Source: Paracoccaceae bacterium
GTDB taxonomy: Bacteria; Pseudomonadota; Alphaproteobacteria; Rhodobacterales; Rhodobacteraceae
Length of the DNA: 40,043 nt
Assembly: GCA_027486345.1 (NCBI GenBank)
Contig: JAIXPH010000002.1
Span: 87,851-127,893 of the forward strand
Reading direction: 5' to 3'
The stretch's first letter is position 1. Each line of letters opens with the position of its first letter. Both the position numbers and the translations under genes were made by a program. Positions 3,259 to 29,391 of this stretch are shown here, piece after piece. The notes beneath the pieces are model-generated. The model was not told where the DNA came from. It searched no databases and was given only the letters and a program-made list of their open reading frames with translations.

Positions 3259-3297
3259 GGCATCGACTGTTTCCAAGTCCTGCCCGCTTGGCAAGGG

Positions 3298-4562: not shown

Positions 4563-4590
4563 TTGACAGGCGGGGCGGCACGCCTAACAT
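4563..4590 (+). promoter_or_regulatory. Predicted promoter of the GntR gene
   Basis: TTGACA (4563-4568), a 16-bp spacer, and TAACAT (4585-4590) form a good sigma-70-type promoter. The -10 hexamer lies inside the palindromic operator 4584-4595, so a bound repressor would block it. The start point would be near 4597, leaving a very short leader. Confidence 0.65.
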
Positions 4591-4595
4591 GTTAG
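4584..4595. promoter_or_regulatory. Palindromic operator O1 (CTAACATGTTAG)
   Basis: A perfect 12-bp palindrome overlapping the -10 element of the GntR gene. The identical 12-mer recurs at 14777-14788 in the divergent transporter promoter region, and a 10/12 version lies at 6351-6362 before btpA. This placement suggests it is the binding site of the adjacent GntR regulator, with autoregulation. The binding itself is inferred. Confidence 0.7.
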
Positions 4596-4596
4596 C

Positions 4597-5337
4597 ATGC
4601 TACAACCATCAATGACCGGATCACCAGAGATGCAAGGCGCGGCGCGACTGACGCCGTTGGACCAGTTTCAGGGGTCACTCGGCCAGCGGGTCTATCAGTC
4701 GCTGCGCCAAGCCATCCTGACGCTGAGCTATCGCCCCGGCGAGGTGATCCGCAAACCGGATATTTGCGACCGTCTGGGCGTGTCGCGCAGCCCGGTGGCC
4801 GATGCCGTCGCGCGTCTGGCCGCCGATGGTCTGGTCGATGTTGTCCCGCAAGCGGGCACCTTTGTCGCGCGTCTGTCAATGACCGACATCCGCGAGGGCG
4901 CCTTCATCCGAGAGGCGATCGAGGTGGCCGCCGCCGAATGGGTCGCCTCCCGCATCACCGACGACCAATTGCGAGAGCTGCGGCGCAACCTGATGATCCA
5001 AGAGGCTTTGGTTGCCGATGGCGACCAGCAGGGCTTCATGGCGCTGGACGGGCAGATGCATGAGATGATGCTGTCCTTCACAGGCTTTCCCCGGCTGCCG
5101 CAGGTGTCGCAGACCGCTTGGCTGAACGTGCATCGCGCGCGGCAGTTGATCCTGCCGGTTCAGGGCCGCCTTGCCACCACACTGGCCGAGCACCGCGCCA
5201 TCCTTGCCGCCTTCGAGGCGCGCGACCCCATGGCCGCGCGGCAAGCCGTGCAGCATCACCTGCGCCAGTTGCTGACCTATCTCCAACCGCTGGAGCGCGA
5301 GCGTCCAGACCTTTTCTCAGCCCAAGGACAGCCATGA
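4597..5337 (+). CDS. GntR-family regulator with FCD domain (FadR subfamily)
   Basis: Probable repressor of the sugar locus, 246 residues from the first ATG. The winged helix-turn-helix spans about residues 27-92 (GQRVYQSLRQAIL, KPDICDRLGVSRSPVADAVARLAADGLVD, VPQAGTFVA). An all-helical FCD ligand domain follows (about 97-225, with FIREAIEVAAAEWVA and the HRAILAAFEARD motif). The start is uncertain. ATG 4597 coincides with the predicted transcription start and would be leaderless; ATG 4612 and ATG 4630 are in frame, and 4630 has a weak GGA/GAG site. It overlaps the next gene by ATGA, so the two are translationally coupled. The effector is probably a sugar or sugar phosphate handled by the pathway (inference). 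Confidence 0.92.
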   Translation: MLQPSMTGSPEMQGAARLTPLDQFQGSLGQRVYQSLRQAILTLSYRPGEVIRKPDICDRLGVSRSPVADAVARLAADGLVDVVPQAGTFVARLSMTDIREGAFIREAIEVAAAEWVASRITDDQLRELRRNLMIQEALVADGDQQGFMALDGQMHEMMLSFTGFPRLPQVSQTAWLNVHRARQLILPVQGRLATTLAEHRAILAAFEARDPMAARQAVQHHLRQLLTYLQPLERERPDLFSAQGQP

Positions 5338-6299
5338 CCCTGCCCAATCGCCCCCGCTATGCCACCCGCCTGAACGCCTTCAAGCAAAAGGGCGACACCG
5401 TGGCCCAGATGATCGCGGCGGCGGGGCGTGTGGGGGGGCTGGATGCGGCGGACCTGAATTTTCCTGACCATTTCGACCATCACAGCCCCGCAGAGCTGTC
5501 GCGGCTGCTCGCGGATCACGGCATGGCGCTGAACGGCTTGGCGATGCGCTATTACACCGATCCCGGCTTTCGGCTGGGGGCCTTCAGCAACCCCGACCCA
5601 AAGGTGCGCCGCGCCGCGATTGATGTGACCAAGCGGGGCTTGGATGCGCTGGCCGCGATGGGCGGGCGGTTGATGACGCTGTGGATGGGGCAGGATGGCT
5701 TTGATTACAGCTTTCAGGCCGATTACGCCCGGCAATGGGACGACAGCATCGCTGCGATTGCCGAAATGGCCGACCACAACCCCGCCATCGACATCGCCAT
5801 TGAATACAAACCCAACGAACCCCGCGCCCATGTGGTGATGCCCGACATGACCACCACCCTGCTCGCGCTGGCCGAGGTGGGGCGCAAGAACACCGGCGTC
5901 ACGCTGGATTTCTGCCACATGCTCTTTGCCGGTGAGATGCCCGCCCGCGCCGCCATGCTCGCCGCGCGGTCCAGCCGCATTCTGGGCGTCCACCTGAACG
6001 ACGGTTACGGCAAGCGCGATGACGGGCTGATCGCAGGCTCGGTGCATCCGGTGCAGACGGTGGAACTGTTCGTGGCGCTGGACCGCATGGGGTATGACGG
6101 GGTGATCTACTTCGACACCTTCCCCGATCACGGCGGCACCGATCCGGTGGGAGAGGCGCGGGCCAACATCGCCGTCACCGACCGTTTGCGCGCCATCGCC
6201 AAGGATCTGGCGGGCAATGCCGATCTGGCGCAGGCCCAAGCGGCCCAGGATGCCGCCGCCGCCACGCGCATCGTTCTGGCGGCGCTGTACGGGGCCTGA
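5334..6299 (+). CDS. Sugar phosphate isomerase/epimerase, AP-endonuclease-2-like TIM barrel
   Basis: Metal-dependent sugar isomerase or epimerase of the xylose-isomerase-like superfamily, 321 residues, cytosolic. Conserved strand-end motifs are visible: NFPDHFDHH near the N-terminus, IEYKPNEPR (metal-ligand Glu), GVTLDFCHML, GVHLNDGYGKRDDG and YFDTFPD, all typical of the IolE/EboC/DTE-like TIM barrels that bind a divalent metal through Glu/Asp/His. ATG 5334 overlaps the GntR stop (ATGA), so the gene needs coupled translation; there is no good separate ribosome site. The downstream hairpin at 6307-6341 ends this two-gene unit. It may interconvert a keto- and aldo-sugar or epimerise a ketose before phosphorylation. 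The exact reaction cannot be told from sequence. Confidence 0.88.
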   Translation: MTLPNRPRYATRLNAFKQKGDTVAQMIAAAGRVGGLDAADLNFPDHFDHHSPAELSRLLADHGMALNGLAMRYYTDPGFRLGAFSNPDPKVRRAAIDVTKRGLDALAAMGGRLMTLWMGQDGFDYSFQADYARQWDDSIAAIAEMADHNPAIDIAIEYKPNEPRAHVVMPDMTTTLLALAEVGRKNTGVTLDFCHMLFAGEMPARAAMLAARSSRILGVHLNDGYGKRDDGLIAGSVHPVQTVELFVALDRMGYDGVIYFDTFPDHGGTDPVGEARANIAVTDRLRAIAKDLAGNADLAQAQAAQDAAAATRIVLAALYGA

Positions 6300-6306
6300 C
6301 CGGCCC

Positions 6307-6341
6307 CACCTCCCCCACAGCACAACGCAGTGGGGGAGGTG
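6307..6341 (+). terminator. Hairpin downstream of the isomerase gene
   Basis: CACCTCCCCCAC (6307-6318), an 11-nt loop, and its exact complement GTGGGGGAGGTG (6330-6341). It stands just past the isomerase stop and before the btpA operator. No T-run follows, so termination may be partial. Confidence 0.6.
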
Positions 6342-6350
6342 CCATAGCCA

Positions 6351-6362
6351 CTGACATGCTAG
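6351..6362. promoter_or_regulatory. Degenerate operator O2 before btpA (CTGACATGCTAG)
   Basis: Matches the CTAACATGTTAG palindrome at 10 of 12 positions; both differences are transitions (A to G, T to C). It stands 60 bp upstream of the btpA start and after the hairpin, where a promoter for the btpA-hydrolase-kinase-SIS operon is expected. Probable weaker binding site of the locus GntR protein (inference). Confidence 0.5.
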
Positions 6363-6422
6363 TGTGTTCCCGCTTCCCCACCCCGTTCTTTCGCGCTAGC
6401 GTGACCCATCAGGGAGGATCAC

Positions 6423-7235
6423 ATGTCGCGCTTTCAGAACGTGTTCGGGGCGAAAAAGCCCGTCATTGCCATGGTTCATCTGGGGGCCTCCCCGGGCGCA
6501 CCGCTGCATGATGCCGCGCGCGGGATCGACGGGATCATCGCCGACGCCCGCGCCGATCTGCACGCCCTGCAAGCGGCGGGCTTTGACGCCGTGATGTTTG
6601 GCAATGAAAACGACCGTCCCTATGAGTTGAAGGTCGATCCCGCCACTTCGACCACCATGGCCTATGTGATTGGCCGGCTGCGCGATGAGATCACGGTGCC
6701 CTTCGGCGTGAACGTCCTGTGGGACCCGCAGGCCTGCTTTGCCGTCGCCGCCGCCACCGGGGCGGAGTTTGTGCGCGAGATTTTCACCGGCACTTATGCC
6801 TCGGACATGGGGATCTGGGCTCCCGATGCCGGGGCCGCCGTGCGCTACGCCCATCGCGTCGGCGCTCAGGATGTGGCGCGACTCTACAACGTCTCGGCCG
6901 AATTTGCCGACAGCCTCGACCGGCGGTCGATTTCCGACCGGGCGCGGTCGGCGGTGTTCTCCTCGATCCCCGATGCGGTGCTGGTCTCGGGTGCCATCAC
7001 CGGCGAGGCGGCAGAGATGCGCGATCTGGAAAGCGTGAAACGTGCCTTGCCGAACACGCCCGTGCTGGCCAATACCGGGGTGAAGCATGACACCGTGGCC
7101 GATGTGCTGGCGGTGGCGGATGGCGTGATCGTGGGCTCGGCCCTGAAGTACAAGGGCGATACATGGTCCGCCGTGGACCCCGACCGCGCCGCCGATTTCA
7201 TGGCCCGCGTCCGTGCGGCACGGGGTGGGGAATGA
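6423..7235 (+). CDS. BtpA/SgcQ family protein
   Basis: TIM-barrel protein of the BtpA/SgcQ family, 270 residues. The family was named for a photosystem I biogenesis factor in cyanobacteria, and for SgcQ of the E. coli sgc sugar cluster, where its reaction is unknown. Family features seen: MVHLGASPGAPL, a GFDAVMFGNENDRPY segment, FGVNVLWDP, ILTGTYASDMG-like FTGTYASDMGIWAPDAG, VLANTGVKHDTVADVLAVADGVIVGSALK (a phosphate-binding-like barrel end) and KYKGDTWSAVDPDRAADFM. AGGGAGG precedes ATG 6423. It overlaps the next gene by ATGA. Its place between a sugar isomerase and kinase genes argues for a sugar-metabolism enzyme, perhaps an aldolase- or epimerase-like barrel; that is inference. Confidence 0.9.
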   Translation: MSRFQNVFGAKKPVIAMVHLGASPGAPLHDAARGIDGIIADARADLHALQAAGFDAVMFGNENDRPYELKVDPATSTTMAYVIGRLRDEITVPFGVNVLWDPQACFAVAAATGAEFVREIFTGTYASDMGIWAPDAGAAVRYAHRVGAQDVARLYNVSAEFADSLDRRSISDRARSAVFSSIPDAVLVSGAITGEAAEMRDLESVKRALPNTPVLANTGVKHDTVADVLAVADGVIVGSALKYKGDTWSAVDPDRAADFMARVRAARGGE

Positions 7236-8320
7236 CCCTGCCCTCTGTCGCCGATCTGACGGTCGAGTTGATGCTGATCCCCGGCCTTGCGGGGTATGAA
7301 ACCCGTGTCTCTGCGGCGATTGCGGCACATCTGGATAGGCTTGGCCTTTCGCATCGGTCAGACCGCTTGGGCAATCTGACCTGCACCCTGCCCGGTGATC
7401 CCGCCCTGCCCCCGGTGATGATCTTCACCCATATGGACCAGTTGGGCTTCATCGTCCGCAAGGTTGAGTCGAATGGCCTGATCCGGCTGGAACGTCTGGG
7501 CGGGGTGCCCGAACGCGCCTTGCCCGCGCAGGCGGTGGTGCTTTGCACGGATAAGGGCGACCTGCCCGCGCTGATCGCCAACAAAAGCCACCACGCCACC
7601 ACGCCCGAGGAAAAGTACAAGGTCCTGCCCTATGCCGATCTTTACGTCGATGCCGGTTTCACCAGCAAGGCAGAGGCAGAGGCGGCAGGCGTGCGCATCG
7701 GCACCCCGGTCACCTATCTGCCGCGTGCGTTGACGCTGGCCAATGGGCGGATCGCGGGCACCTCTGTCGATGACCGCGCGGGCTGTGCGGCGCTGTTGAA
7801 ACTGGCCGAGGCGCGGATGGGCAAACCCGGCCCCACCCTGCATTTCGTCTGGGCGGTGCAAGAAGAATACAACCTGCGCGGCGTGTTGCCTGCGGCCACG
7901 GCGCTTGCGCCCGCCATCGCCTTGCAGATCGACCTGCTTCTGGCCTGTGACACCCCCGACATGACGCATCGCGGCGATGTCACCTTGGGCGGCGGGCCGG
8001 GGATATCGCTTTATTCCTTCCACGGGCGCGGCACGCTGAATGGGGTGATCCCGCATCCGGCCTTAGTGCACTTGTTTGAAAATGCTGCGGAAACGGCGGC
8101 GCTGCCCCTGCAACGCTCGGCCCACACGGGCGCGCTGACGGACCTGAGCTATATCCAGTTCATGGGGACCGAAGGTGTCGCTTGCCTCGATGTCGGCTTT
8201 CCCATGCGCTATTCGCATTCCGCGCTGGAAGTCGTTGATCCTGCCGACCTTGACGGCATGGTGACGCTGATCGACACCGCCCTTTCCGCCATCACCCCGG
8301 ACATAAGACTGACGCGCTGA
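7232..8320 (+). CDS. M42-family metallo-aminopeptidase-like hydrolase (SgcX/FrvX-like)
   Basis: Dinuclear-metal hydrolase of the M42 glutamyl aminopeptidase/'cellulase M' family, 362 residues. The metal and catalytic motifs are all present in order: FTHMDQLGF (His, Asp), SVDDRAGC (bridging Asp), VQEEYNLRG (Glu-Glu, base and ligand), ACDTPD (Asp) and MRYSHSALE (His). So it is likely active. ATG 7232 overlaps the btpA stop (ATGA). In E. coli the paralogues SgcX and FrvX also sit in sugar operons, and SgcX sits with a BtpA homologue (SgcQ), so the pairing here is an independent recurrence. Its substrate may be a sugar-amino-acid conjugate or an acylated sugar rather than a peptide (inference). 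Confidence 0.9.
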   Translation: MTLPSVADLTVELMLIPGLAGYETRVSAAIAAHLDRLGLSHRSDRLGNLTCTLPGDPALPPVMIFTHMDQLGFIVRKVESNGLIRLERLGGVPERALPAQAVVLCTDKGDLPALIANKSHHATTPEEKYKVLPYADLYVDAGFTSKAEAEAAGVRIGTPVTYLPRALTLANGRIAGTSVDDRAGCAALLKLAEARMGKPGPTLHFVWAVQEEYNLRGVLPAATALAPAIALQIDLLLACDTPDMTHRGDVTLGGGPGISLYSFHGRGTLNGVIPHPALVHLFENAAETAALPLQRSAHTGALTDLSYIQFMGTEGVACLDVGFPMRYSHSALEVVDPADLDGMVTLIDTALSAITPDIRLTR

Positions 8321-8321
8321 C

Positions 8322-9797
8322 ATGACCCATACCCTTGGTATCGACATCGGCACCTTCGAATCCAAAGGCGTGATCGTCGATGGCGCAGGCCAGATCGTCG
8401 CCAGCGCCAGCCGCCCGCATAAGATGATCGTGCCCCGCGCAGGCTGGGCCGAACACCGCGCGGACGAGGATTGGTGGGGCGATTTCGTCTATCTGTGCCG
8501 CGCTTTGCTGGCGCAATCCGGGCTGGACGCGTCACAGATCAAGGCCGTCGCCGCCTCAGCCATTGGGCCTTGCATGCTGCCGGTGGATGCGGACGGTGCG
8601 CCGCTGATGAACGGCGTGCTCTACGGCGTGGACACCCGCGCCACCGACCAGATCGCCGCCTTGAATGCGCGGATCGGTGAGGATGTGATCCTGACCCGAT
8701 GCGGCAATGCGCTGACCTCGCAGCAGGTGGGGCCGAAAATCCTGTGGCTGAAGGAAACCCATCCCGACCTTTACGCCCGCACTGCGAAAGTGCTGACCTC
8801 CACCAGTTACCTGACGTGGAAGCTGACAGGCGAATACGTCATCGACCACTATACGGCGGCCAATTTCAGCCCGCTTTATGATGTCGAAACCCAAGACTGG
8901 ACCGCCGATCTGGCCCCCGGCATTCTGCCGCTGGAGAAACTGCCGCGTCTGATGTGGTCGACGGAAATTGCCGGGCATGTTACCGCACAAGCGGCGGCGG
9001 AAACCGGCCTCGCCATCGGCACGCCCGTCACCTGTGGCACCATCGATGCGGCGGCCGAGGCGGTGTCGGTCGGCGTGCAGCATCCCGGTCAGATGATGAT
9101 GATGTATGGCTCCACCATCTTCATCATTCAGGTCACTGCCACGCCCGTGCGCGATGCGCGGCTGTGGTATGCGCCGTGGCTGTTTCCGGGCACCCATGCC
9201 TCGATGGCGGGACTGGCCACATCGGGCACGCTGACCACATGGTTTCGTGACACGCTGGCCCGGGATGCCGATTTCGCGGCCTTGGTGGCCGAAGCGACGG
9301 CCAGCCCCAAGGGGGCGAAGGGGCTGCTGTGCCTGCCCTATTTCTCGGGCGAGCGGACACCGATCCATGATCCGCATGCACGCGGCGTGTTCTTCGGGCT
9401 GAACCTGACCCATGACCGCGCCGATATGTTCCGCGCCGTGGTCGAAGGCATCGCCGCAGGCACGGCCCATGTGATGGAAACCTACGCTGCGGCCGGGGCG
9501 AGTCCGACGCAGGTGATGGCGGTGGGGGGCGGCACCAAGAACGCGCTTTGGCTGCAAGCCACATCGGACTTTGCCGGGGTGGCGCAGCAGGTTTGCGAAA
9601 AGACCGTCGGGGCCAGCTATGGCAACGCCTTCCTCGCCGCCACGTCCATCGGCGCGGCAAAGCCTGATGACATCGCCCGCTGGAATCCCAACGTCCGCAC
9701 GATCACACCCGACGCCGTGCCCGCCTATGCGGTGCAATACCCGCTGTGGAAACGGCTTTACGCCCAGACCCGCGACATCATGCAGGATTTGCCATGA
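8322..9797 (+). CDS. FGGY-family carbohydrate kinase
   Basis: ATP-dependent sugar kinase of the xylulokinase/glycerol kinase superfamily, 491 residues, cytosolic. The N-terminal actin-like domain opens with LGIDIGTFESKGVIVD (phosphate-1 loop; Ser-Lys is less common than the usual Thr or Ser context). GVLYGVDTRATDQ follows. The C-terminal domain carries GTIDAAAEAVSVG, MMMMYGSTIF and MAVGGGTKNALWLQATSDFAG (FGGY signature 2 and adenosine loop). The start follows the hydrolase stop by 1 nt. Probably phosphorylates the keto-sugar released or isomerised by the neighbours. A pentulose or hexulose cannot be separated by eye. Confidence 0.92.
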   Translation: MTHTLGIDIGTFESKGVIVDGAGQIVASASRPHKMIVPRAGWAEHRADEDWWGDFVYLCRALLAQSGLDASQIKAVAASAIGPCMLPVDADGAPLMNGVLYGVDTRATDQIAALNARIGEDVILTRCGNALTSQQVGPKILWLKETHPDLYARTAKVLTSTSYLTWKLTGEYVIDHYTAANFSPLYDVETQDWTADLAPGILPLEKLPRLMWSTEIAGHVTAQAAAETGLAIGTPVTCGTIDAAAEAVSVGVQHPGQMMMMYGSTIFIIQVTATPVRDARLWYAPWLFPGTHASMAGLATSGTLTTWFRDTLARDADFAALVAEATASPKGAKGLLCLPYFSGERTPIHDPHARGVFFGLNLTHDRADMFRAVVEGIAAGTAHVMETYAAAGASPTQVMAVGGGTKNALWLQATSDFAGVAQQVCEKTVGASYGNAFLAATSIGAAKPDDIARWNPNVRTITPDAVPAYAVQYPLWKRLYAQTRDIMQDLP

Positions 9798-10339
9798 CGC
9801 CCCTTTTGTCCGCCCTGAAAGAGTTAGAGGCCGTCGCCCTCGGCATGGACGAGGCGCAGATCGAGTCTGCCTGCCAGACCATCGCCCGCGCCAACCGGAT
9901 CGTCGCCTATGGCTGTGGGCGCGAAGGCTTGATGATGCGGGCATTGGCGATGCGGCTGCACCATCTGGGAAAACACGTCGCCATGCAGGGCGACATGGCC
10001 GCGCCGCCGCTGGGTGCAGGGGATCTGTTCCTGTGCGCTGCCGGACCGGGGGAGTTGTCCACCGTCACCGCCCTGATGGGCGTCGCGCAACGGGATGGCG
10101 CAGCGGTGCTGATGGTGACGGCAGAGCCGGATCACCCCAGCCCGCGCCGCGCGGATCATCTGCTGGTGATCCCCGCGCAGACCATGGCGCGCGATATCGG
10201 CGGGGCCTCTACCCTGCCGATGGGGTCTTTGTTCGAAGGGGCGATGTTTCTGGTGTTCGAGATCATGGTGTTGCGCCTGACCGCCCTGCTGGGCCAAACG
10301 CCTGAGGCTATGCGCGCCCGCCACACGAATATGGAATGA
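9794..10339 (+). CDS. SIS-domain sugar isomerase, 6-phospho-3-hexuloisomerase-like
   Basis: Small single-SIS-domain protein, 181 residues, resembling HxlB (6-phospho-3-hexuloisomerase). Features seen: an N-terminal helix pair, RIVAYGCGREGLMMRALAMRLHHLG (phosphosugar-binding strand-helix), then GAGDLFLCAAGPGELSTVTALM (second phosphate loop) and the C-terminal MGSLFEGAMFLVFEIMVLRL helix usual in this family. ATG 9794 overlaps the kinase stop (ATGA). As the last gene of the plus-strand operon it probably isomerises the phosphorylated ketose made by the FGGY kinase. It ends only 12 bp from the converging FucU gene. Confidence 0.88.
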   Translation: MTPLLSALKELEAVALGMDEAQIESACQTIARANRIVAYGCGREGLMMRALAMRLHHLGKHVAMQGDMAAPPLGAGDLFLCAAGPGELSTVTALMGVAQRDGAAVLMVTAEPDHPSPRRADHLLVIPAQTMARDIGGASTLPMGSLFEGAMFLVFEIMVLRLTALLGQTPEAMRARHTNME

Positions 10340-10351
10340 CCCTGCCAGCGT

Positions 10352-10807
10352 CTAAAGCGCAGGCAAATCCACCACGCCCTTTTTCAGGATGAAACACCCA
10401 TAGGGTCCGGAATCTGCCGTGCGGATGATGGCAAAGGCGTTTTTCGCGGCGGCGTAAAAGGCAAACCGCTCCAGGGGTTCAATCGTCACTGCGCGGCCTT
10501 CGGCGCGGTCCACCACGGCCTGCATCCGCGCAAAGATTGGCACCACGCCATCCGGGTTGCCCACCACCTGCATCCGCGACACGGGTGCCGGAACAAAGGT
10601 ATCCAGCGGCATCAAGGACAGGATTGCCGCCGCCGCAGTGGGAATGTCGCAGCCCGCCATGTCGATCAGCCGACCATAGGTCGTCTCGGCAGCAATCGTC
10701 GCCGCCGGGTGGTTCACGTCGCAGATCACCAGATCATCGCCATGCCCCATCAGCATCAGGACATGGACAATCTCGGCACTCAGGCGTTGGTCGATGCCTT
10801 TGAGCAT
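10352..10807 (-). CDS. RbsD/FucU-family sugar mutarotase, copy 1
   Basis: Sugar mutarotase of the FucU type, 151 residues, which interconverts sugar anomers so the right one is used by isomerases or kinases. It shows MGHGDDLVICDVNHPA (with the conserved His near residue 22), SLMPLDTFV, and the C-terminal RFAFYAAAKNAFAIIRT...YGCFILKKGVV block with the catalytic Tyr. The closest pattern is FucU rather than RbsD. The ATG overlaps the permease stop as TAATG, so it is the last gene of the transporter operon on this strand. A second FucU paralogue lies at 15950-16402. Confidence 0.92.
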   Translation of the reverse strand: MLKGIDQRLSAEIVHVLMLMGHGDDLVICDVNHPAATIAAETTYGRLIDMAGCDIPTAAAAILSLMPLDTFVPAPVSRMQVVGNPDGVVPIFARMQAVVDRAEGRAVTIEPLERFAFYAAAKNAFAIIRTADSGPYGCFILKKGVVDLPAL

Positions 10808-11727
10808 TACTTCACCGCCCCCGCCGCCATGCCCTTGATGATGTAGCGCTCCAAGACGATGCCGATGATGATCAAGGGCAGGATCGCGGCCCAAGCCAGC
10901 GCCGCCATCGACCACCACGAAATCCCCTGACTGCCGGTCTGGCTGGCCACCATCACGGGCAAGGTGTTGGCATGGGTCGAGGTCAGCAGGGCCGCAAAGA
11001 AATATTCATTCCACGTCAGCACCAAGGACAGGATGAAGGCCGCCACCATCCCCGGCAAGGCAATGGGCAGGATGATCGTGATGAACGCGCCCCAGATCGA
11101 CAGACCATCGACCAAGGCGGCCTCTTCCAGCTCGGTCGGGATGGACGAAAACTGATCGCGCATGATCCAGACCACGATGGGCAGCACGGACAGGGTATAG
11201 AGCAGGATCAACCCGATCCGCGTGTCCAGAAGCGCCAGTTCCTTATACAGCACCAGCATCGGCAGCGCGAGCACCACCGGTGGCAGGATCAGTTGCGAAA
11301 GGAAGAAGAACGAGATGTCGCCATTCTTCATCCACAGGAATTTATAGTTGAACCGGCTCAGGCCATAGGCGGCCAAAGACCCCAGCACCACCGCAAGGAC
11401 CGCGGACACCACCGACACGATGGCCGAATTGCTGAAGCGTTTCAGAAACTCGGCCCTGACCGTGCTGTCATCGCCCAAAGTGTCGGGTGACAGGCCCAGC
11501 GACTTCCACCCGAGCCACTTCGGGGTGAAATCTACCCAAGGGATCATGTTCCCCTTCATCACGTCGGGGGCCATCTTGAAGCTGGTGGTCAGCGTCCAGT
11601 AGATCGGGAAGAGGCAGATCACCGCCCACAGCGCCAGCAGCGCATAGACCGCCAGCCGCCCGGAAAACCGCTTGGCCCGGAATGCCCGATCCACCGGGCT
11701 GTCATGGAAAATCTGGGTGTCGGTCAT
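10807..11727 (-). CDS. CUT1 ABC transporter permease (MalG/UgpE-like)
   Basis: Inner-membrane subunit of a carbohydrate ABC importer, 306 residues, six predicted membrane segments: the first at about 25-46 (LAVYALLALWAVICLFPIYW), the last near 275-296 (AALAWAAILPLIIIGIVL). The cytoplasmic EAA loop LEEAALVDGLSIWGAFITI, which docks on the ATPase, is intact. It has a fairly large periplasmic loop after the first segment (about residues 50-105). The ATG overlaps the stop of the partner permease (ATGA), as is usual for CUT1 pairs. It works with the ATPase at 14867-15922, although that gene is on the opposite strand. Confidence 0.93.
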   Translation of the reverse strand: MTDTQIFHDSPVDRAFRAKRFSGRLAVYALLALWAVICLFPIYWTLTTSFKMAPDVMKGNMIPWVDFTPKWLGWKSLGLSPDTLGDDSTVRAEFLKRFSNSAIVSVVSAVLAVVLGSLAAYGLSRFNYKFLWMKNGDISFFFLSQLILPPVVLALPMLVLYKELALLDTRIGLILLYTLSVLPIVVWIMRDQFSSIPTELEEAALVDGLSIWGAFITIILPIALPGMVAAFILSLVLTWNEYFFAALLTSTHANTLPVMVASQTGSQGISWWSMAALAWAAILPLIIIGIVLERYIIKGMAAGAVK

Positions 11728-12830
11728 GTTCTGGGCCTTGCAATGCGGTCTGCCAGCTTCATCAGCAGGGTCATGGCGATGATGATGATCACGAGGTAAA
11801 CCATCGCCAGCAGCGTGCCGTAGCCGACGTTCGACCGATCCCGATATTCGCGGAAGATGAACGAGGTGACGGTATCCGTCGCCCCCCCCGGCCCGCCCGA
11901 GGTGACGGCGATCACGATATCGGCCAGCTTCAGTTTAAAGATGATGCGGATCAGGATGGCGGTGATCGACACCGGCAGCATCATGGGGAAGGTCACCTCC
12001 CAGAACGCGCGCCAGCCGTTTGCGCCATCGACCTTGGCGGCCTCATTCAATTCCTTGGGGATGGCCTGCAACCCGGCAAGGATCATGATCATCATGAAGG
12101 GGATAAAGGTCCAGGCATCCATCAGCATGATGGTGATCTTGGCGACCATGGGACTGCCAAAGAAGGACGGGTCCTCCCACCCCAGAAAGCGCGCCAAGCG
12201 CGCGATGGGGCCAAAGCGGGCCTCAAGCATCGACTTGCCGATCATCCAACTGACGGCCACGGGCGACAGCATCAAGGGCAGCAGGAAGGCCACGCGAAAA
12301 AACTTCCGCGCCCTGATCTCGGCATTCAGCGCCAAGGCGAGGGCAAAGGCGATGGCATATTCGATCAGGATCGCCAGCGTGTACCAGACCATGTTCAGCA
12401 TGGCGTTCCAGTAGAACGGGTCAGCCCACATCTGCCGGACGTTGTCTAGGCCGTTGAACTGCCGCCCCGACGTGCTGGACAGGTTCCAGTCGGAAAACGC
12501 GATGACCAACCCGAACAACAGCGGGAACACTGTCAGAGATATCACAAACATCGCCGCGGGCAGCACGAACAGCGTGCGCTTGCCATGCTCGCCATGCATC
12601 AACACCTGACCCCAGCAGAGGCAGATCGTCCACAGCACATAGGCGTAAAGCGTGGGTCGCCAATTCTCGAACCCGAAGGACGCGCTGCCCGTCATCTGCA
12701 GCAGTTGCGCCGCGGCAACCACCAGCATCAGCAGCCCTGACCCCCAGATGATCGCGCGGCCAAAACTCTTTCGCCCCGCTGAGATGCTGTCATTGGTGAC
12801 AACGTGTAAAAGGTCGCCTGCGCCGCTCAC
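11724..12830 (-). CDS. CUT1 ABC transporter permease (MalF/UgpA-like)
   Basis: Inner-membrane partner of the MalG-type permease, 368 residues. It is longer than a plain six-helix subunit: two additional hydrophobic stretches precede the core (about 25-46 and 60-78), giving eight predicted segments. The EAA loop NEAAKVDGANGWRAFWEVTFP is present. The start is GTG at 12830; no in-frame ATG exists before the first helix. It follows the binding-protein gene by 92 bp carrying two hairpins, which would lower its expression relative to the binding protein. Confidence 0.9.
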   Translation of the reverse strand: MSGAGDLLHVVTNDSISAGRKSFGRAIIWGSGLLMLVVAAAQLLQMTGSASFGFENWRPTLYAYVLWTICLCWGQVLMHGEHGKRTLFVLPAAMFVISLTVFPLLFGLVIAFSDWNLSSTSGRQFNGLDNVRQMWADPFYWNAMLNMVWYTLAILIEYAIAFALALALNAEIRARKFFRVAFLLPLMLSPVAVSWMIGKSMLEARFGPIARLARFLGWEDPSFFGSPMVAKITIMLMDAWTFIPFMMIMILAGLQAIPKELNEAAKVDGANGWRAFWEVTFPMMLPVSITAILIRIIFKLKLADIVIAVTSGGPGGATDTVTSFIFREYRDRSNVGYGTLLAMVYLVIIIIAMTLLMKLADRIARPRT

Positions 12831-12856
12831 CGGAATGCCCTGCCCTTGAAAAGCAA

Positions 12857-12915
12857 GGTGCGCAAAGACTGCGCACCCTGCGGCCTTGTGGTGGGGGCAC
12901 CGTCACGGAGCCCCC
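12857..12915 (-). terminator. Two tandem hairpins between binding protein and permease genes
   Basis: Hairpin A: GGTGCGCA (12857-12864), 5-nt loop, exact complement 12870-12877. Hairpin B: GGGGGC (12893-12898) pairs with GCCCCC (12910-12915). Both follow the binding-protein stop on the minus strand. They probably act as an attenuator or 3'-end stabiliser giving excess binding protein, a common arrangement in ABC import operons. Confidence 0.6.
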
Positions 12916-12922
12916 GTTCTGG

Positions 12923-14554
12923 TCACATCCCCAGCGAGGCTTTATACAGCGCAATCTGGCTGTCGCGGCCGATCTGATCGGTGATCTTTTCCCAAGCGGC
13001 GGCAATCGCATCGGCGGTTTCTTGTGCCGATTTGTAGGTGCCTGCGTAGCCCTTGGCCAATTCATCCTCGGCGACCGAGTAGTATTGGAAGATGCCGGGG
13101 ATACGCGGTTCGATCGCGGCGTTCGGGTGGTTGTAGCTGTCGAGGTTGGAGCCAAGGTAATCCTCGACAAACTCCTTGTCGTAGCCTGCCGCGATCCACT
13201 CTTCGTACTGGAAGTGGCTGTTGCGATAGGGCTGGAAGCCCGACGGATAGGCGGACATCCACAGCGACAGGTCCTTGCCGCCCAGATGGGCTGCGGCGGA
13301 CCATGCGGCCTTGCGCTTCTTCTCATCGCCGGACACGCGGTTGGTGACGTAAACGCCCCATCCCAGATAGGCCATGTTCGGCGACTCGTTGTAGGTTTCT
13401 TCCCACGCGCCGGTCTGGCTGTTGTACACCTTGTCCGAGCCGGGGTTGATCCCGAAGCCCACCACATCGCCCACGACAGAGGTGTCAGAGGTGCGTGCGT
13501 TGGACCCGATATCGCCCCACCACATCAGCATCGAGCCGGTGCCCGCGAGGAACTGCGAGAAGCCGGTGGTGCCGGGGTCGGCGTTGATCTGGTCGGCCGG
13601 GTAGGCATTGGCCGCGATCAGGTCCATCACATCCTGGATGGCCTGCACCCAAGCCGGATTGTTGACGCGCGGCTTCATGGTCTCGGGATCGAACAGCCAT
13701 GCCGGATCGGACGGATGCTTGGCATAGGCGGCGGCACGGTTTTCGAGGAAGTAGAAGCCGAAGCCACCCCAGCCCTTCAGGGGATCCAGATAGCCATAGG
13801 CGGGCAGGCTGGTCAGCGGGTCGGTCTGACCGGCAAGCGCCTTGGACACGGCATTGACCTGCTGCCAGGTCTTGGGCACGTCCGCCCCACCAATCGCGCC
13901 TTCGCCGAAGTAATCCTTGCGATAGGCGAAGGTGTGGCAGTCGCCGTCGATCGAGATGCGATAGGTCTTGCCACCCCAGGTGCCCACGGGCGCCTTCAGG
14001 TAGTTCACGTAATCGTCCATCTCGATCTGGGCGGCCACCCATTCGGGCATCTCGTCCAGCAGGCCCTGACCGGCGGTATCGCCCTCCAGCGGTGCGCCCA
14101 TGGCGAGGATGTCAAAGTCCACGGTGCCCGTGGCGATGTTCTGTTGCAGGCGCGGGTTATAGTCGGCCTGTGCAAGGTCGATCCAGTTGATCTTCGCGCC
14201 GGTGTAGGTTTCCCAGCCCTTGAGCAGACCGCGGAACAGGATGTTGTGCAGCCCGTTGTTGTTGATGCCGAAGAAGGTCAGTTCGACCCCGGCGAATTCG
14301 CCTTCGGCCACATTGGCCTTCGTCGGGCCAAGGCAGAGTTCGCCGACCTTTTGCCAATCGGCATCGGTGGGCGAGCCCGCACCCACGCCGGGAATGGCAA
14401 GGATCTGCGCGCGGACGGAATCCTGCGCCATGGCCGGACCAAAGCCCATGGCCTTGGGCATCATCGCCATCGCACCCAATGCCGCGGTGCCGCGCAACAT
14501 GTTGCGGCGGCTCATCTTGGCGCGCGTGATGGCCTCGTAGAGTTCGACCTTCAA
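12923..14554 (-). CDS. Carbohydrate ABC transporter substrate-binding protein, Tat-type signal
   Basis: Periplasmic sugar-binding protein of a CUT1 importer, 543 residues, long for the family. The start is TTG at 14554: GGAGG lies about 7 nt upstream, while the ATG at 14515 has no ribosome site; the frame is open further upstream to 14761 but without support. A twin-arginine signal is seen (MSRRNMLRG, then AALGAMAMM and a site near PAMA-QD, about residues 14-47), so export in folded form is likely. The mature part carries NNNGLHNILFRGLLKGWETYTG and many aromatic residues (WGGFGFYFLENRAAAY, MLMWWGDIG) expected in a sugar pocket. Ligand unknown. Confidence 0.9.
   Translation of the reverse strand: MKVELYEAITRAKMSRRNMLRGTAALGAMAMMPKAMGFGPAMAQDSVRAQILAIPGVGAGSPTDADWQKVGELCLGPTKANVAEGEFAGVELTFFGINNNGLHNILFRGLLKGWETYTGAKINWIDLAQADYNPRLQQNIATGTVDFDILAMGAPLEGDTAGQGLLDEMPEWVAAQIEMDDYVNYLKAPVGTWGGKTYRISIDGDCHTFAYRKDYFGEGAIGGADVPKTWQQVNAVSKALAGQTDPLTSLPAYGYLDPLKGWGGFGFYFLENRAAAYAKHPSDPAWLFDPETMKPRVNNPAWVQAIQDVMDLIAANAYPADQINADPGTTGFSQFLAGTGSMLMWWGDIGSNARTSDTSVVGDVVGFGINPGSDKVYNSQTGAWEETYNESPNMAYLGWGVYVTNRVSGDEKKRKAAWSAAAHLGGKDLSLWMSAYPSGFQPYRNSHFQYEEWIAAGYDKEFVEDYLGSNLDSYNHPNAAIEPRIPGIFQYYSVAEDELAKGYAGTYKSAQETADAIAAAWEKITDQIGRDSQIALYKASLGM
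14493..14506. promoter_or_regulatory. Operator-like palindrome inside the binding-protein gene
   Basis: CGCAACATGTTGCG is a perfect 14-bp palindrome sharing the AACATGTT core with operators O1 and O3. It lies in the signal-peptide codons (Asn-Met-Leu), about 280 bp from O3, a distance at which DNA looping would be possible. It may equally be a coincidence of coding. Confidence 0.2.
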
Positions 14555-14866
14555 GATAGCTCCTCCCTTTGTTTGTCTTTGCCCGGACCGTTGTTCCGAC
14601 GCGGGTCTGATGTTTGCTTGCACGGTCTGCACAGATGCCACCTTTCGTCCGGGGCATCCCCGGTCCGCGGATGGCAGCGTTTGTTGGGGTCTCCCACACC
14701 CCGGCATGGCCGCTTTCTCCCAAAAGCCGACCTTCCGGAGGGTAGCTTCGCAAGGTGGCACTCCCCTGTCAAGTTTCTAACATGTTAGTATGGTCAGCGG
14801 GTGGACAGAGCCGTCGGGACTGGGTTAGAAATCGGGCGGGGTGCACACCCTGGACTTAGGGGAGGC
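14555..14866. other. Divergent regulatory region of the sugar transporter
   Basis: About 310 bp between the binding-protein (minus) and ATPase (plus) genes. It holds operator O3 (14777-14788), a minus-strand TTGACA (14772-14767) usable as -35, and, on the plus strand, TAGTAT (14786-14791) overlapping the operator as a possible -10. The minus-strand leader of about 200 nt has a strong hairpin, CCGGGG (14649-14654), cat, CCCCGG (14658-14663), and then GGAGG before the TTG start. No riboswitch recognised. Confidence 0.55.
14777..14788. promoter_or_regulatory. Palindromic operator O3 (CTAACATGTTAG)
   Basis: Identical over all 12 bp to the palindrome at the GntR promoter about 10 kb away. It lies between the divergent binding-protein and ATPase genes, overlapping a plus-strand -10-like TAGTAT and standing just upstream of a minus-strand TTGACA. 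One bound dimer could control both directions. Regulation by the GntR protein is inferred from identity and placement. Confidence 0.7.
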
Positions 14867-15922
14867 ATGCGTTTGGCCGAAGTTACGATCCGCGCGTTGC
14901 GGAAAACCTATGGCGGCTTGCAGGTCATCCATGGCCTTGATCTGGACATACCGGACGGGGCTTTCGTCGTGCTGGTCGGCCCGTCGGGCTGCGGCAAGTC
15001 CACCCTGCTGCGGATGATTGCCGGGCTGGAAGAGGTGACGGGTGGGGATGTGATGATCGGGGCCACGCGGGTGAACAACCTGCCACCGTCCGAGCGTGAC
15101 ATCGCCATGGTGTTCCAGAATTACGCGCTTTATCCGCACAAGACGGTGGCGGCCAACATGGGCTTCGCGCTGAAGATGCGCGGCATGGATGCGGGCGCGA
15201 TCCGCGCCAAGGTGGAGCATGCGGCGGGGATTCTGGGCCTGACACCCTATCTGGACCGCTACCCGCGCGCCCTGTCTGGCGGTCAGCGCCAGCGCGTCGC
15301 CATGGGCCGCGCCATCGTGCGTGATCCGCAGGTGTTCCTGTTCGATGAACCCCTGTCCAACCTTGACGCCAAGCTGCGCGTGCAGATGCGCACGGAAATC
15401 AAGGAACTGCACCAGCGCCTGAAGACCACCACGGTCTATGTCACCCACGACCAGATCGAGGCGATGACCATGGCCGACAAGATCGTGGTCATGCAGGGCG
15501 GCCGGATCGAACAGGTCGGCGCCCCGCTGGAGCTTTATGACCGCCCCGCCAATGCCTTTGTCGCGGCCTTCATCGGCAGCCCTTCGATGAACCTTTTGGA
15601 CGGGCGCATCGCGGGCGGGATGGTCGATGTCGGGGGAACGCGCCTGCCCCTGCCCCCCGGCGTATCGCCCGATGAGGGGCGCGAGGTGATCTATGGCATC
15701 CGTCCCGAACACCTTCATCAGGCCGATGCGGGGCTGACCGGGACCGTGGCCGTGATCGAACCCACCGGGTCGGAAACCCATGTCGTGCTGCGTCTGGCGG
15801 GGCGAGAGATCACCGCCGTCTTCCGCAACCGCGTGTCCTTTGCCCCCGGCGCCACGATCACGCTTGCACCCGACGCGGCGGTATCGCACCTCTTTGACAA
15901 GGCCACGGGCCAGCGTATCTGA
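14867..15922 (+). CDS. Carbohydrate ABC transporter ATP-binding protein (MalK/UgpC-like)
   Basis: ATPase of the CUT1 sugar importer, 351 residues. Walker [10 protein letters not shown] (38-46), Q-loop [10 protein letters not shown], signature [11 protein letters not shown] (135-145), Walker B VFLFDEP (156-162), D-loop SNLDAKLR and switch His194 (VTHDQIEAM) are intact. The TOBE/OB C-terminal domain follows (from about 235, with GIRPEHLH). ATG 14867 has AGGGGAGG just upstream; the 22 open codons before it lack support. It serves the permeases at 10807-12830 on the other strand and starts the operon that includes the second FucU and the kinase. Confidence 0.95.
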
Positions 15923-15949
15923 AACCGACGCACTCTAGGGGGGACTGCC

Positions 15950-16402
15950 ATGCTAAAAGGAATCGACAACCGGCTGAACGCCGATGTCTTGGGCTGTTTG
16001 CGGGCCATGGGGCATGGCGATGTGATCATCATCTCGGACACCAATTTTCCCGCCGATTCCGTGGCCCGCGCCACGGTGACCGGCAAGCTGTTGCGGATGG
16101 AAAACCTGACCGCGGCGCAGGCGGTGCAGGCCGTGCTGTCGGTGCTGCCGCTGGATACTTTCGTCGATGACTTCGCCGGGCGGATGGAAATCGTCGGTGA
16201 TGCCGCCACCATCCCCCCCGTGCAGGCCGAGGTGCAGGCCGAGATTGACGCCGCCGAAGGCCGTCACCGTCCGATGATCTCGATCGAGCGGTTCGCGTTC
16301 TACGATATGGCCCGCAACGCCTATGCCGTGATCCAGACCGGTGAGCGTCGGTTCTACGGCTGCTTCATGCTCCGCAAGGGCGTGATCCCGCCCGAGGCAT
16401 GA
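15950..16402 (+). CDS. RbsD/FucU-family sugar mutarotase, copy 2
   Basis: FucU-type mutarotase, 150 residues. It shows MGHGDVIIISDTNFPA with the conserved His, SVLPLDTFV, and RFAFYDMARNAYAVIQTGERRFYGCFMLRKGVI with the catalytic Tyr. It is clearly paralogous to copy 1 (10352-10807): both begin MLKGID and share the same C-terminal block, but they differ at many positions in between. AGGGGGG lies about 6 nt before the ATG. It overlaps the kinase gene by ATGA. Two mutarotases in one locus suggest either two different sugar intermediates or one per operon. Confidence 0.92.
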   Translation: MLKGIDNRLNADVLGCLRAMGHGDVIIISDTNFPADSVARATVTGKLLRMENLTAAQAVQAVLSVLPLDTFVDDFAGRMEIVGDAATIPPVQAEVQAEIDAAEGRHRPMISIERFAFYDMARNAYAVIQTGERRFYGCFMLRKGVIPPEA

Positions 16403-17322
16403 TCATGAAACCCATCGTCATCCTTGGCATCTTCGTTGCCGACACCGCCTATCGCGCCGAGCGTCAGCCCAAGATGGGCGAAACCATCCTTGGCACGTCT
16501 TTCGTGCTGGGGCCGGGCGGCAAGGGCTCCAACCAATCCGTCGCCGCCGCCATGGCGGGGGGACGCGTGCATTTCATCACCCGTCTGGGGGCCGATGCCT
16601 TTGCCGCGATCGCGCAGTCGACTTGGGCCAAGGCGGGCGTGGTACCCGAAGTCAAGGTCGACCACGAAAGCTACACCGGCGCGGCCTATATCTTCATCGA
16701 AAACGCCACCGGCAATAACGCGATCATCGTCGCCCCCGGTGCCGCAGGCCGCGTGTCGGTGCAGGATGTCGAAGAAAAGGCCGATCTGATCCGCTCTGCC
16801 GCGATCTTCGTGACGCAGTTGGAACAGCCGATCCCCGCCGCCCTGCGCGCGCTGGAGATTGCCCGCGCGGCAGGCGTGACCACGATCCTGAACCCCGCCC
16901 CCGCCGCCACCCTGCCCGACGCCATGCTCGCGTTCTGCGATTACGTCACTCCCAATGAATCCGAGGCCGAGGCCCTGACCGGCCTGCCCGTGACGACGGT
17001 CGAGGAAGCCCGGAGCGCCGCCGCCGCCCTGCTGGCCAAAGGCGTGGGCGCGGTGGTGATCACGCTGGGTGACAAGGGGGCGCTCTATCACGACGCGCGC
17101 CAATCGGTGCATGTCCCGGTGATTTCTGCTGGGCCGGTGGTGGAAACCACAGGCGCGGGGGATGCCTTCAACGGTGGCTTCGCCGTGGCCTTGGCCGAAG
17201 GCCGCGATGTGATCGAGGCCGTCCGCTTTGGCTGCGCCACTGCGGGCATCTCGGTCACCCGCCCCGGCACCGCCCCTGCCATGCCCAGCCGCGCCGAAAT
17301 CGACGCCTTGCTGGCCAGATAA
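16399..17322 (+). CDS. Ribokinase-like PfkB carbohydrate kinase
   Basis: ATP-dependent cytosolic sugar kinase close to RbsK in layout, 307 residues. It has GPGGKGSNQSVAAAMAGG (38-55; GGKG-NQ is the ribokinase N-terminal motif), NPAPAATLP, VTPNESEAEALTG (the ribokinase NE-E motif) and TTGAGDAFNGGF with the catalytic Asp at about residue 255. ATG 16399 overlaps the FucU stop (ATGA); ATG 16405 is a second possibility. As last gene of the ATPase-FucU-kinase operon it ends at a clear hairpin. With an FGGY kinase also in the locus, two phosphorylation steps or two substrates are implied. Confidence 0.92.
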   Translation: MIMKPIVILGIFVADTAYRAERQPKMGETILGTSFVLGPGGKGSNQSVAAAMAGGRVHFITRLGADAFAAIAQSTWAKAGVVPEVKVDHESYTGAAYIFIENATGNNAIIVAPGAAGRVSVQDVEEKADLIRSAAIFVTQLEQPIPAALRALEIARAAGVTTILNPAPAATLPDAMLAFCDYVTPNESEAEALTGLPVTTVEEARSAAAALLAKGVGAVVITLGDKGALYHDARQSVHVPVISAGPVVETTGAGDAFNGGFAVALAEGRDVIEAVRFGCATAGISVTRPGTAPAMPSRAEIDALLAR

Positions 17323-17352
17323 CGCAGGTCCCCGCCTTGCGGGGGCCCTGCG
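17323..17352 (+). terminator. Hairpin terminator after the ribokinase-like gene
   Basis: Begins 1 nt after the kinase stop: CGCAGG (17323-17328) and CCCCGC inside pair with GCGGGG and CCTGCG (ending 17352), with a cTT loop and a small bulge. No T-run. It ends the sugar locus on the plus strand. Confidence 0.65.

Positions 17353-29316: not shown

Positions 29317-29391
<75 letters not shown>

What the first reader, a model, noticed from the sequence alone, without database searches (positions are those of the whole stretch)
4597..17322. Undescribed sugar uptake and catabolism system built around BtpA/SgcQ and an M42 hydrolase
The locus combines a Tat-exported CUT1 binding protein, two permeases, an ATPase, two FucU mutarotases, a TIM-barrel isomerase/epimerase, an FGGY kinase, a ribokinase, a SIS hexulose-phosphate isomerase-like protein, a BtpA/SgcQ protein and an M42 hydrolase. 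The BtpA plus M42 pair recalls SgcQ and SgcX of the E. coli sgc cluster, whose substrate is not known, but here the importer is ABC-type instead of PTS. I know of no named pathway with this gene set. A modified or conjugated sugar (for example N-acylated or glycosyl-linked) would explain a peptidase-like enzyme here.
Basis: partly seen in the sequence, partly recalled or inferred. Interest (0 to 1): 0.8.

Follow-up and report, generated by a model that had tools for sequence, protein, structure and literature searches.

The report
Sugar uptake regulon with SgcQ–SgcX pair
A group of bacterial genes, apparently switched together by one regulator, imports and breaks down a sugar like D-arabinose or L-fucose and carries relatives of an E. 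coli enzyme pair (SgcQ and SgcX) whose job is still unknown, so it gives a concrete way to find out what that pair does.

Summary
The gene set is real and intact. Its three transcription units share one palindromic operator, CTAACATGTTAG: exact copies before the GntR gene and between the binding-protein and ATPase genes, and a two-mismatch copy before btpA. At up to one mismatch the 4.08-Mb assembly has only those two exact sites. The BtpA-linked M42s tested form one clade (100/100), and an HGRGTL insert is in 75 of 75 linked M42s and 0 of 21 others. The importer, with FucU and ribokinase, stands without BtpA–M42–FGGY in 10 of 12 sampled importer loci. Many relatives' loci also carry an aldose dehydrogenase, a fuconolactonase-like protein and a UxaA/GarD-type dehydratase, enzymes known from non-phosphorylative D-arabinose/L-fucose catabolism; in this genome a similar run sits on another contig. 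Best reading: an aldose of D-arabino/L-fuco configuration is imported, mutarotated and phosphorylated; a grafted BtpA–M42–FGGY module is an ATP-kinase version of the E. coli PTS-driven Sgc module, which probably removes a nitrogen-linked group from a phosphorylated sugar. The BtpA and M42 reactions remain unproven.

The parts
   Evidence: At least 45% identical to a kinase in 19 of 80 related loci; TIGR02152 209 bits, under the 299.65 cut-off
4584..4595 (.). operator 1, CTAACATGTTAG, perfect palindrome before GntR
4597..5337 (+). GntR/FCD transcriptional regulator, proposed controller of the three units
   Evidence: PF07729 and PF00392; operator presence tracks this gene
5334..6299 (+). AP_endonuc_2 TIM-barrel sugar isomerase/epimerase
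   Evidence: PF01261; nearest solved chain 3ktc, E 6e-45
6351..6362 (.). operator 2, CTGACATGCTAG, two mismatches, before btpA
6423..7235 (+). BtpA/SgcQ-clade protein, predicted phosphate-binding (beta/alpha)8 barrel
   Evidence: PF03437 247 bits; TIGR00259 252 bits over its cut-off; model pLDDT 86, matches phosphate-binding barrels
7232..8320 (+). M42 metallohydrolase of the SgcX clade, with HGRGTL insert and di-metal motifs
   Evidence: PF05343 224 bits
8322..9797 (+). FGGY sugar kinase (xylulokinase-like)
   Evidence: PF00370/PF02782; TIGR01312 300 bits, under the 380 cut-off
9794..10339 (+). SIS-domain sugar-phosphate isomerase (HxlB-like)
   Evidence: TIGR03127 143 bits, under the 160 cut-off; nearest solved chains 1m3s/1viv
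10352..10807 (-). FucU1 mutarotase
   Evidence: PF05025; closer to FucU than RbsD models, both under cut-off
10807..11727 (-). CUT1 permease PermC
   Evidence: PF00528
11724..12830 (-). CUT1 permease PermB
   Evidence: PF00528
12923..14554 (-). 543-aa CUT1 solute-binding protein with Tat-type signal
   Evidence: PF01547 and PF10518; about 80% identical copies on rhizobial plasmids
14777..14788 (.). operator 3, CTAACATGTTAG, between the divergent SBP and ATPase units
14867..15922 (+). CUT1 ATPase (UgpC/MalK type)
   Evidence: NF008653 494 bits, over its 432 cut-off
15950..16402 (+). FucU2 mutarotase
   Evidence: 47% identical to FucU1
16399..17322 (+). ribokinase-like kinase RbsK
   Evidence: TIGR02152 298.1 bits, just under the 299.65 cut-off; nearest solved chains are ribokinases

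Best explanation
The locus is one GntR/FCD-controlled sugar regulon made of joined modules. Module A (CUT1 importer, two FucU mutarotases, ribokinase, SIS isomerase, with the TIM isomerase) takes up an aldose of D-arabino/L-fuco configuration, D-arabinose most likely and L-fucose next. It mutarotates the sugar and phosphorylates it: aldopentose to 5-phosphate by RbsK, then isomerised by SIS into the pentose-phosphate pool. In many relatives the same block also oxidises the sugar (aldo-keto reductase, lactonase, UxaA/GarD dehydratase). Here those three genes are missing from the locus, and an L-fucose dehydrogenase-dehydratase-SDR-FAH run lies on another contig. Module B (BtpA-M42-FGGY) is the ATP-kinase counterpart of the E. 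coli PTS-driven Sgc module. FGGY phosphorylates a ketose-type or polyol-type derivative, BtpA acts on the sugar phosphate through a phosphate-binding barrel, and the SgcX-type M42 hydrolyses a carbon-nitrogen bond of a substituent; the sugar phosphate then joins A. Shown: gene content, shared motif, SgcQ/SgcX descent, module make-up. Inferred: substrate class, order of steps, operator function, and the reactions of BtpA and M42.
For: Operator CTAACATGTTAG: 3 matches at up to 2 mismatches in the window, all before these units, against 0.19 expected; none of 100 shuffles had 3. Only 2 sites at up to 1 mismatch in the 4.08-Mb assembly, both here; the control (pattern reversed) had 1. In relatives it lies before btpA in 32 of 37 loci with GntR and 0 of 23 without (60 of the 80 loci, those with at least 4.5 kb upstream); in the SBP/ATPase gap (37 loci) in 27 of 27 with and 2 of 10 without, the two being on contigs that begin near TIM, short of GntR's usual place. 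Module A: FucU2 and RbsK near the SBP in 12 of 12 phylum-sample genomes, SIS in 8, AKR in 8, BtpA-M42-FGGY in 2. Aldose class: AKR nearest in the PDB to L-galactose dehydrogenases, lactonase-like NF052480 and UxaA/GarD; PMC6336799 reports an AKR for D-arabinose/L-fucose and a UxaA/GarD D-arabinonate dehydratase (passages, sections 8 and 13). Own genome: L-fucose dehydrogenase NF052481 420 bits, cut-off 300, beside a dehydratase, SDR and FAH. Module B: order in 72 of 74 loci, M42 clade 100/100, HGRGTL in 75 of 75 linked full-length M42s and 0 of 21 unlinked. BtpA fold and invariant K242. Of 11 annotated plasmid BtpA loci, 5 hold a kinase plus hydrolases of amide, ureide or similar bonds (L035, L036, L037, L121, L122).
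Against: No ligand or activity is known for any protein here. The oxidative arm is not in this locus, and the run on contig C39 lacks the operator, so its link to this locus is by function only. The UxaA/GarD superfamily has several subfamilies with different substrates (PMC6336799); which one these dehydratases join was not tested, and their best NCBIfam model is galactarate dehydratase under its cut-off. The lactonase-like proteins are under the L-fucono-lactonase cut-off. The FucU, FGGY and SIS models fall under their cut-offs. SIS is HxlB-like, not KdsD-like, which fits arabinose-5-phosphate poorly. BtpA-M42-FGGY also occurs with CUT2 importers, without FucU, AKR or SIS (L104, L109, L111, L118; DhaK in three), so its substrate need not be this aldose. 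6 of the 11 annotated plasmid BtpA loci (L033, L034, L038, L123, L124, L125) give no clear carbon-nitrogen hydrolase partner by my reading, though L124 has an amidohydrolase-family gene close by. The related loci are the 80 nearest of 580 confirmed ones, so counts lean to close relatives, and Fisher values ignore shared ancestry. The promoter scan found 1 site where shuffles gave 2.8.
Confidence: 0.5

Rival explanations
1. One reading: one dedicated pathway for a conjugated (N-acylated or N-linked) sugar, imported as the conjugate by this ABC transporter and cleaved by M42, with BtpA and the kinase finishing the job.
For: In L100/L112 the importer genes lie beside BtpA-M42-FGGY without FucU, AKR or SIS; in L087 ATPase, BtpA, M42, FGGY, SBP and both permeases run in one direction; creatininase-family genes follow FGGY in 26 of 69 loci and an amidase is in 2 of 80. 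Shared operator. The E. coli sgc operon is induced on nitrogen-containing carbon sources (PMC13343008 section 8).
Against: A closely similar importer stands without BtpA-M42-FGGY, with FucU and ribokinase, as expected for a free reducing sugar.
Confidence: 0.25
2. BtpA is a plain sugar-phosphate epimerase, isomerase or aldolase on the ketose-phosphate made by FGGY, and M42 is a peptidase recruited for another role. The module is an extra phosphorylating branch for the imported sugar.
For: The BtpA model matches epimerases and aldolases (RPE, NanE, KDPGal aldolase) as well as PRAI and TrpA. In the Shinella, Labrenzia and R. leguminosarum variants SgcQ-clade BtpA sits with SDR and FGGY and no annotated M42.
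Against: M42 is kept directly downstream of btpA in 72 of 74 loci, and the linked M42s are one clade from E. coli to alphaproteobacteria, which is hard to explain for a bystander.
Confidence: 0.17
3. Two unrelated catabolic modules that sit together and are induced by the same signal but act on different nutrients found in the same source.
For: Modules A and B each occur without the other.
Against: SIS overlaps FGGY by 4 bases in the window and follows it in 14 of 69 loci, and the same motif stands before both modules.
Confidence: 0.08

Closest known systems
E. coli K-12 sgc operon (sgcR E A Q C B X)
   Same: SgcQ-clade BtpA and SgcX-clade M42, both by descent; substrate unknown in print (PMC13343008, passages and section 8 read)
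   Different: E. coli uses a PTS and an RPE-like SgcE; the regulator of the Salmonella copy is annotated DeoR/GlpR family. Here an ABC importer, an FGGY kinase, SIS, FucU, RbsK and a GntR/FCD regulator
Non-phosphorylative D-arabinose / L-fucose route (Watanabe and co-workers, PMC6336799, passages and sections 8 and 13 read)
   Same: Many relatives of the locus carry AKR, lactonase-like, UxaA/GarD-type, SDR and FAH proteins; own genome has L-fucose dehydrogenase, dehydratase, SDR and FAH on contig C39
   Different: The window itself holds none of these enzymes; it holds the importer, mutarotases and kinases
Rhizobial ABC-FucU-ribokinase operons (Rhizobium phaseoli R723, R. binae)
   Same: ATPase, SBP (80% identical), two permeases, FucU, RbsK
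   Different: No BtpA, M42, FGGY or SIS match in the stretch and no motif at up to 1 mismatch; a LacI regulator instead
BtpA clade II clusters (PfkB kinase, BtpA, CUT2 importer, M20/TenA/PTE-like proteins)
   Same: Kinase plus BtpA plus hydrolases
   Different: BtpA only about 30% identical; PfkB in place of FGGY; no M42

Membership tests
E. coli-type Sgc system | SgcQ-clade BtpA | tested here: met
   47% identical to E. coli SgcQ over full length; three BtpA of other clades are 29-34% identical to the window's
E. coli-type Sgc system | SgcX-clade M42 beside BtpA | tested here: met
   One clade 100/100 with SgcX; HGRGTL insert in 25 of 25 linked and 0 of 21 unlinked tree rows
E. coli-type Sgc system | PTS enzyme II (SgcA/B/C) and RPE-like SgcE | tested here: not met
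   No PTS or RPE family among the window proteins scanned; SgcC and SgcE gave no best match in the 80 loci
M42 metallopeptidase | PF05343 over cut-off and the di-metal motifs | tested here: met
   224 bits, cut-off 23; simple motif patterns in 70 of 75 full-length linked M42s; the other 5 differ by a neighbouring residue, and L078 also lacked the last pattern
M42 metallopeptidase | aminopeptidase activity | not testable with these tools
   Needs assay
Cyanobacterial photosystem I biogenesis BtpA | NF045918 equivalog cut-off | tested here: not met
   162.5 bits against 400
Non-phosphorylative D-arabinose/L-fucose pathway | aldose dehydrogenase, dehydratase, SDR and FAH in this genome | tested here: met
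   Contig C39: L-fucose dehydrogenase 420 bits over cut-off 300; dehydratase, SDR and FAH 64-70% identical to those of relatives' loci, each named only by models under cut-off. A lactonase was not searched for in the genome
Non-phosphorylative D-arabinose/L-fucose pathway | those enzymes inside this locus | tested here: not met
   123 bases between TIM and btpA where relatives have the AKR; no AKR, lactonase or UxaA in the gene map
6-phospho-3-hexuloisomerase (HxlB) | TIGR03127 cut-off | tested here: inconclusive
   143 bits against 160
L-fucose mutarotase FucU | NF011949 equivalog cut-off | tested here: not met
   72 and 85 bits against 141; RbsD model scores lower still
CUT1 ABC importer | SBP, two permeases, MalK/UgpC-type ATPase | tested here: met

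The most novel reading that the evidence does not exclude
SgcQ-SgcX is a widespread two-enzyme module for nitrogen-linked sugars. A kinase or PTS first phosphorylates a ketosamine or glycosyl-amide (for example a ribulosyl- or arabinosyl-amino compound). BtpA, a barrel like phosphoribosylanthranilate isomerase, reverses the Amadori-type linkage or splits the glycosylamine, and the SgcX-type M42 removes the amino-acyl part. The pentose phosphate enters the pentose-phosphate pathway through SgcE in E. coli or SIS here. This would be a new pathway and the first enzymatic role for the BtpA family that I know of.
Probability: 0.18. Interest if true: 0.8.

Novelty: new variant of a known kind. Interest (0 to 1): 0.6.

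Why it matters
E. coli sgc is an orphan operon; a 2026 study saw it induced on nitrogen-containing carbon sources but found no growth phenotype in sgc mutants (PMC13343008, section 8). Here its two core genes are tied, by descent and by a shared motif, to an importer and a recognisable D-arabinose/L-fucose setting in alphaproteobacteria, named isolates among them. That turns an open question about two orphan families (BtpA and SgcX-type M42) into a short list of ligands and a few clean knock-outs. It also gives an operator motif and a sequence signature (HGRGTL) that can be checked across the 580 loci found.

Tried and rejected
Rejected: chance grouping (72 of 74 loci keep BtpA-M42-FGGY). Rejected: photosystem I role for this BtpA (162.5 bits against 400). 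Rejected: SIS as a defining part of BtpA-M42-FGGY; it follows FGGY in 14 of 69 loci and stands with the importer in 8 of 12 importer loci. Weakened: the binding-protein fold as a ligand clue; the best solved matches (4rya, 5iai) are 19% identical, their ligands are recalled (polyols), not shown by the call, and the model is only pLDDT 75. Weakened: nucleoside-phosphate glycosidase role for BtpA; single clusters hold 8-oxoguanine deaminase, allophanate hydrolase or TenA, but I saw no such gene named in most loci looked at. My ORF caller picked some antisense ORFs as families (e.g. f15), so counts come from tblastn with sense references, not. In one search two of eight BtpA relatives (L003, L016) were read in a wrong frame and are not used. 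The M42 tree carries the tool's warnings of long branches among the unlinked rows (L178, L186, L187, L194). Paper searches with BtpA+FGGY, BtpA+sugar terms, BtpA+TIM barrel and five L-fucose terms returned no paper. Of PMC3511314 I saw only the listing and start of the abstract; of PMC5797941 and PMC6946681, passages. Not reached: Gram-positive and archaeal chromosomes.


Full report
1. What is there. Spacing is typical of operons: three 4-base overlaps and a 1-base gap in the first unit, with 123 bases between TIM and btpA. The window is G000 C49:87851-127893 in a 4.08-Mb, 65-contig, 98% complete assembly.

2. Distribution. A strong BtpA match is in 17 of 19 genomes of the genus (own included); the two without are an 83% complete assembly and a 1.5-Mb one. 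It is in 2 of 18 genomes from other genera of the family and 1 of 24 from other families of the class. In an even phylum sample, BtpA is in 18 of 398 genomes and M42 in 61 of 398. Eight genomes have both, and in five the two lie within 3 kb (own, G317, G256, G321, G380).

3. Related loci. With sense references, M42 is in 78 of 80 and FGGY in 77 of 80, contig ends included. Of 74 loci with at least 2.8 kb downstream of btpA, 72 have M42 next and FGGY after it; the exceptions are L090 (no M42) and L094. Of 52 loci with at least 8 kb on both sides: FGGY 51, M42 50, SBP 43, AKR 40, TIM 33, FucU2 31, lactonase-like 30, UxaA 26, PfkB2 26, RbsK 23, FucU1 22, creatininase family 22, SIS 12.

4. One regulon. 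The palindrome CTAACATGTTAG lies just before GntR and overlaps the only sigma-70-like site found in 4200-17800; that scan found 1 site against 2.8 in shuffles, so the promoter itself is no evidence. At up to two mismatches the palindrome occurs three times in the 40-kb window: before GntR, before btpA and in the SBP/ATPase gap; 0.19 are expected and none of 100 shuffles had three. At up to one mismatch it occurs at only two sites in the assembly, both here; the reversed-pattern control had one. In the 80 loci, 91 matches at up to one mismatch fall in 1.36 Mb, against 1, 1 and 3 in simple shuffles; by nearest start 90 of 91 fall near a gene of this system (29 ATPase, 24 GntR, 10 BtpA, 10 PermB, 9 UxaA, 4 SBP, 4 AKR) and 1 elsewhere. 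Upstream of btpA the motif (up to two mismatches) is in 32 of 37 loci with GntR and 0 of 23 without (60 loci with enough upstream sequence); in the SBP/ATPase gap, 27 of 27 and 2 of 10. The two are L041 and L106, whose contigs begin near TIM. These are related sequences, so Fisher values overstate the evidence. That GntR binds the motif is inference.

5. Modules. Module A (importer, FucU, RbsK) exists without BtpA-M42-FGGY: Rhizobium phaseoli and R. binae plasmids carry ATPase, SBP (80% identical), permeases, LacI, FucU and RbsK, and Agrobacterium plasmids carry a similar block with a TIM isomerase. In the phylum sample 12 of 398 genomes have this SBP. Reading the 11 fetched regions and the window: FucU2 and RbsK in 12 of 12, AKR in 8, SIS in 8, creatininase family in 6, BtpA-M42-FGGY in 2 (window and L167). 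Some regions end at contig ends. G380 has BtpA-M42-FGGY on another contig beside two permease genes, FucU1 and SIS (L136); its SBP region L164 carries the motif too. Module B (BtpA-M42-FGGY) exists without A in 6 of the 52 long loci, and L094 has neither A nor M42: with CUT2 importers in L109, L111 and L118, as also in L104 on a shorter contig, with DhaK in L104, L109 and L118; and with a PTS in E. coli and Salmonella, where no FGGY is listed. In L100 and L112 the A-type importer stands beside B without FucU, AKR or SIS.

6. Sugar class. In many relatives the block holds an aldo-keto reductase (40 of 52, in 39 directly before btpA on the other strand), an L-fucono-1,5-lactonase-like amidohydrolase (NF052480, 201 and 152 bits for the two types, under the 400 cut-off), and before GntR a UxaA/GarD-type dehydratase; some add SDR and an FAH-family protein. 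The AKR's nearest solved relatives are L-galactose dehydrogenases. [quoted passage not shown] The same paper describes several UxaA/GarD subfamilies with other substrates; I did not test which one these proteins join. In this genome no close AKR was found (best match 36%), but contig C39 has an L-fucose dehydrogenase over its cut-off, with dehydratase, SDR and FAH proteins 64-70% identical to those of the relatives' loci. Such dehydrogenases can take both sugars (FucX of Campylobacter, PMC6946681, passages). That run carries no operator copy. Ribokinase can make D-arabinose 5-phosphate in vitro (PMC11430244, passages), so RbsK plus SIS could be the phosphorylating branch; the SIS is, however, HxlB-like (143 bits against 160).

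7. SgcQ and SgcX. BtpA is 47% identical to SgcQ. M42 and SgcX are mutual best hits among the window M42, SgcX, FrvX and YpdE. In a tree of 46 M42 proteins the 25 linked to BtpA, SgcX included, form one side of a 100/100 branch; some unlinked rows have long branches, and the unlinked rows are all from Pseudomonadota. The insert HGRGTL[NA]G is in 75 of 75 full-length linked M42s of the 80 loci, in 25 of 25 linked tree rows and in 0 of 21 unlinked ones. The metal-site motifs are kept, with small changes in 5 of 75. The BtpA model (pLDDT 86) matches phosphate-binding barrels: KDPGal aldolase, PRAI, TrpA, thiamin phosphate synthase, PcrB, RPE, NanE, and also dihydropteroate synthase. Residues invariant across 11 BtpA proteins from several clades include H19, N61, R118, D184, G219 and K242; by the DSSP string many lie at or near strand ends, where such barrels bind substrate (family knowledge). 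No solved BtpA was found; the best sequence match was a TrpA-like chain at E 0.012.

8. Mechanism. Replacement of the PTS by FGGY around the same BtpA-M42 pair suggests that a phosphorylated sugar is the common intermediate. Partners that break carbon-nitrogen bonds recur (M42; amidase in L081/L108; creatininase family in 26 of 69 loci; M20, ArgE-type and TenA in clade II; allophanate hydrolase and isochorismatase in L036), which suggests a nitrogen-linked group; but only 5 of 11 annotated plasmid loci show one clearly, and the Shinella L033, Labrenzia and haloarchaeal loci do not. PMC13343008 (passages and section 8) reports the sgc genes induced 16- to 25-fold under nitrogen-containing conditions, with no growth defect in sgc mutants, and calls the substrate unknown. 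The order kinase, then BtpA and M42, is inference.

9. Verdict. Real, conserved and apparently co-regulated. The core pair belongs to the Sgc kind; the surrounding pathway looks like the D-arabinose/L-fucose kind; the combination is a new variant. The reaction of BtpA and M42 remains the open and testable point.

Noticed in passing
window 17954-22579 +: 1541-aa protein with RTX calcium-binding repeats and a C-terminal Hint domain (PF00353, PF13403).
   Followed up: no
window 3-818 -, 911-2179 -, 2356-3294 -: ABC ATPase-like ORF, an SBP_bac_8-type binding protein and a LysR regulator beside PfkB2 (for the last two); no match at 45% identity or more to the LysR or the binding protein in the 80 related loci.
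   Followed up: partly
window 25676-26977 -, 37137-38528 +, 29317-29391 +: Histidinol dehydrogenase, an Sbt_1-type sodium-dependent bicarbonate transporter and a tRNA-Thr.
   Followed up: no
   Followed up: partly
L036:8744-14307: Rhizobium leguminosarum run: two isochorismatase-type hydrolases, allophanate hydrolase AtzF, SgcQ-clade BtpA and FGGY kinase behind a CUT1 importer; suggests a urea- or amide-bearing sugar derivative.
   Followed up: no
L104, L109, L118: BtpA-M42-FGGY with a CUT2 importer and a dihydroxyacetone-kinase DhaK (DhaL too in L104).
   Followed up: no
L032:8112-8918: RefSeq labels E. coli SgcQ 'putative nucleoside triphosphatase', which does not fit its barrel family.
   Followed up: no
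L078, L099: Largely syntenic copies on contigs binned as Chloroflexi and Bacteroidota; mis-binning or transfer.
   Followed up: no
L164 (G380 C32): A second importer-FucU-RbsK region without BtpA-M42-FGGY that carries an exact operator copy, in a genome whose other copy is with BtpA.
   Followed up: no
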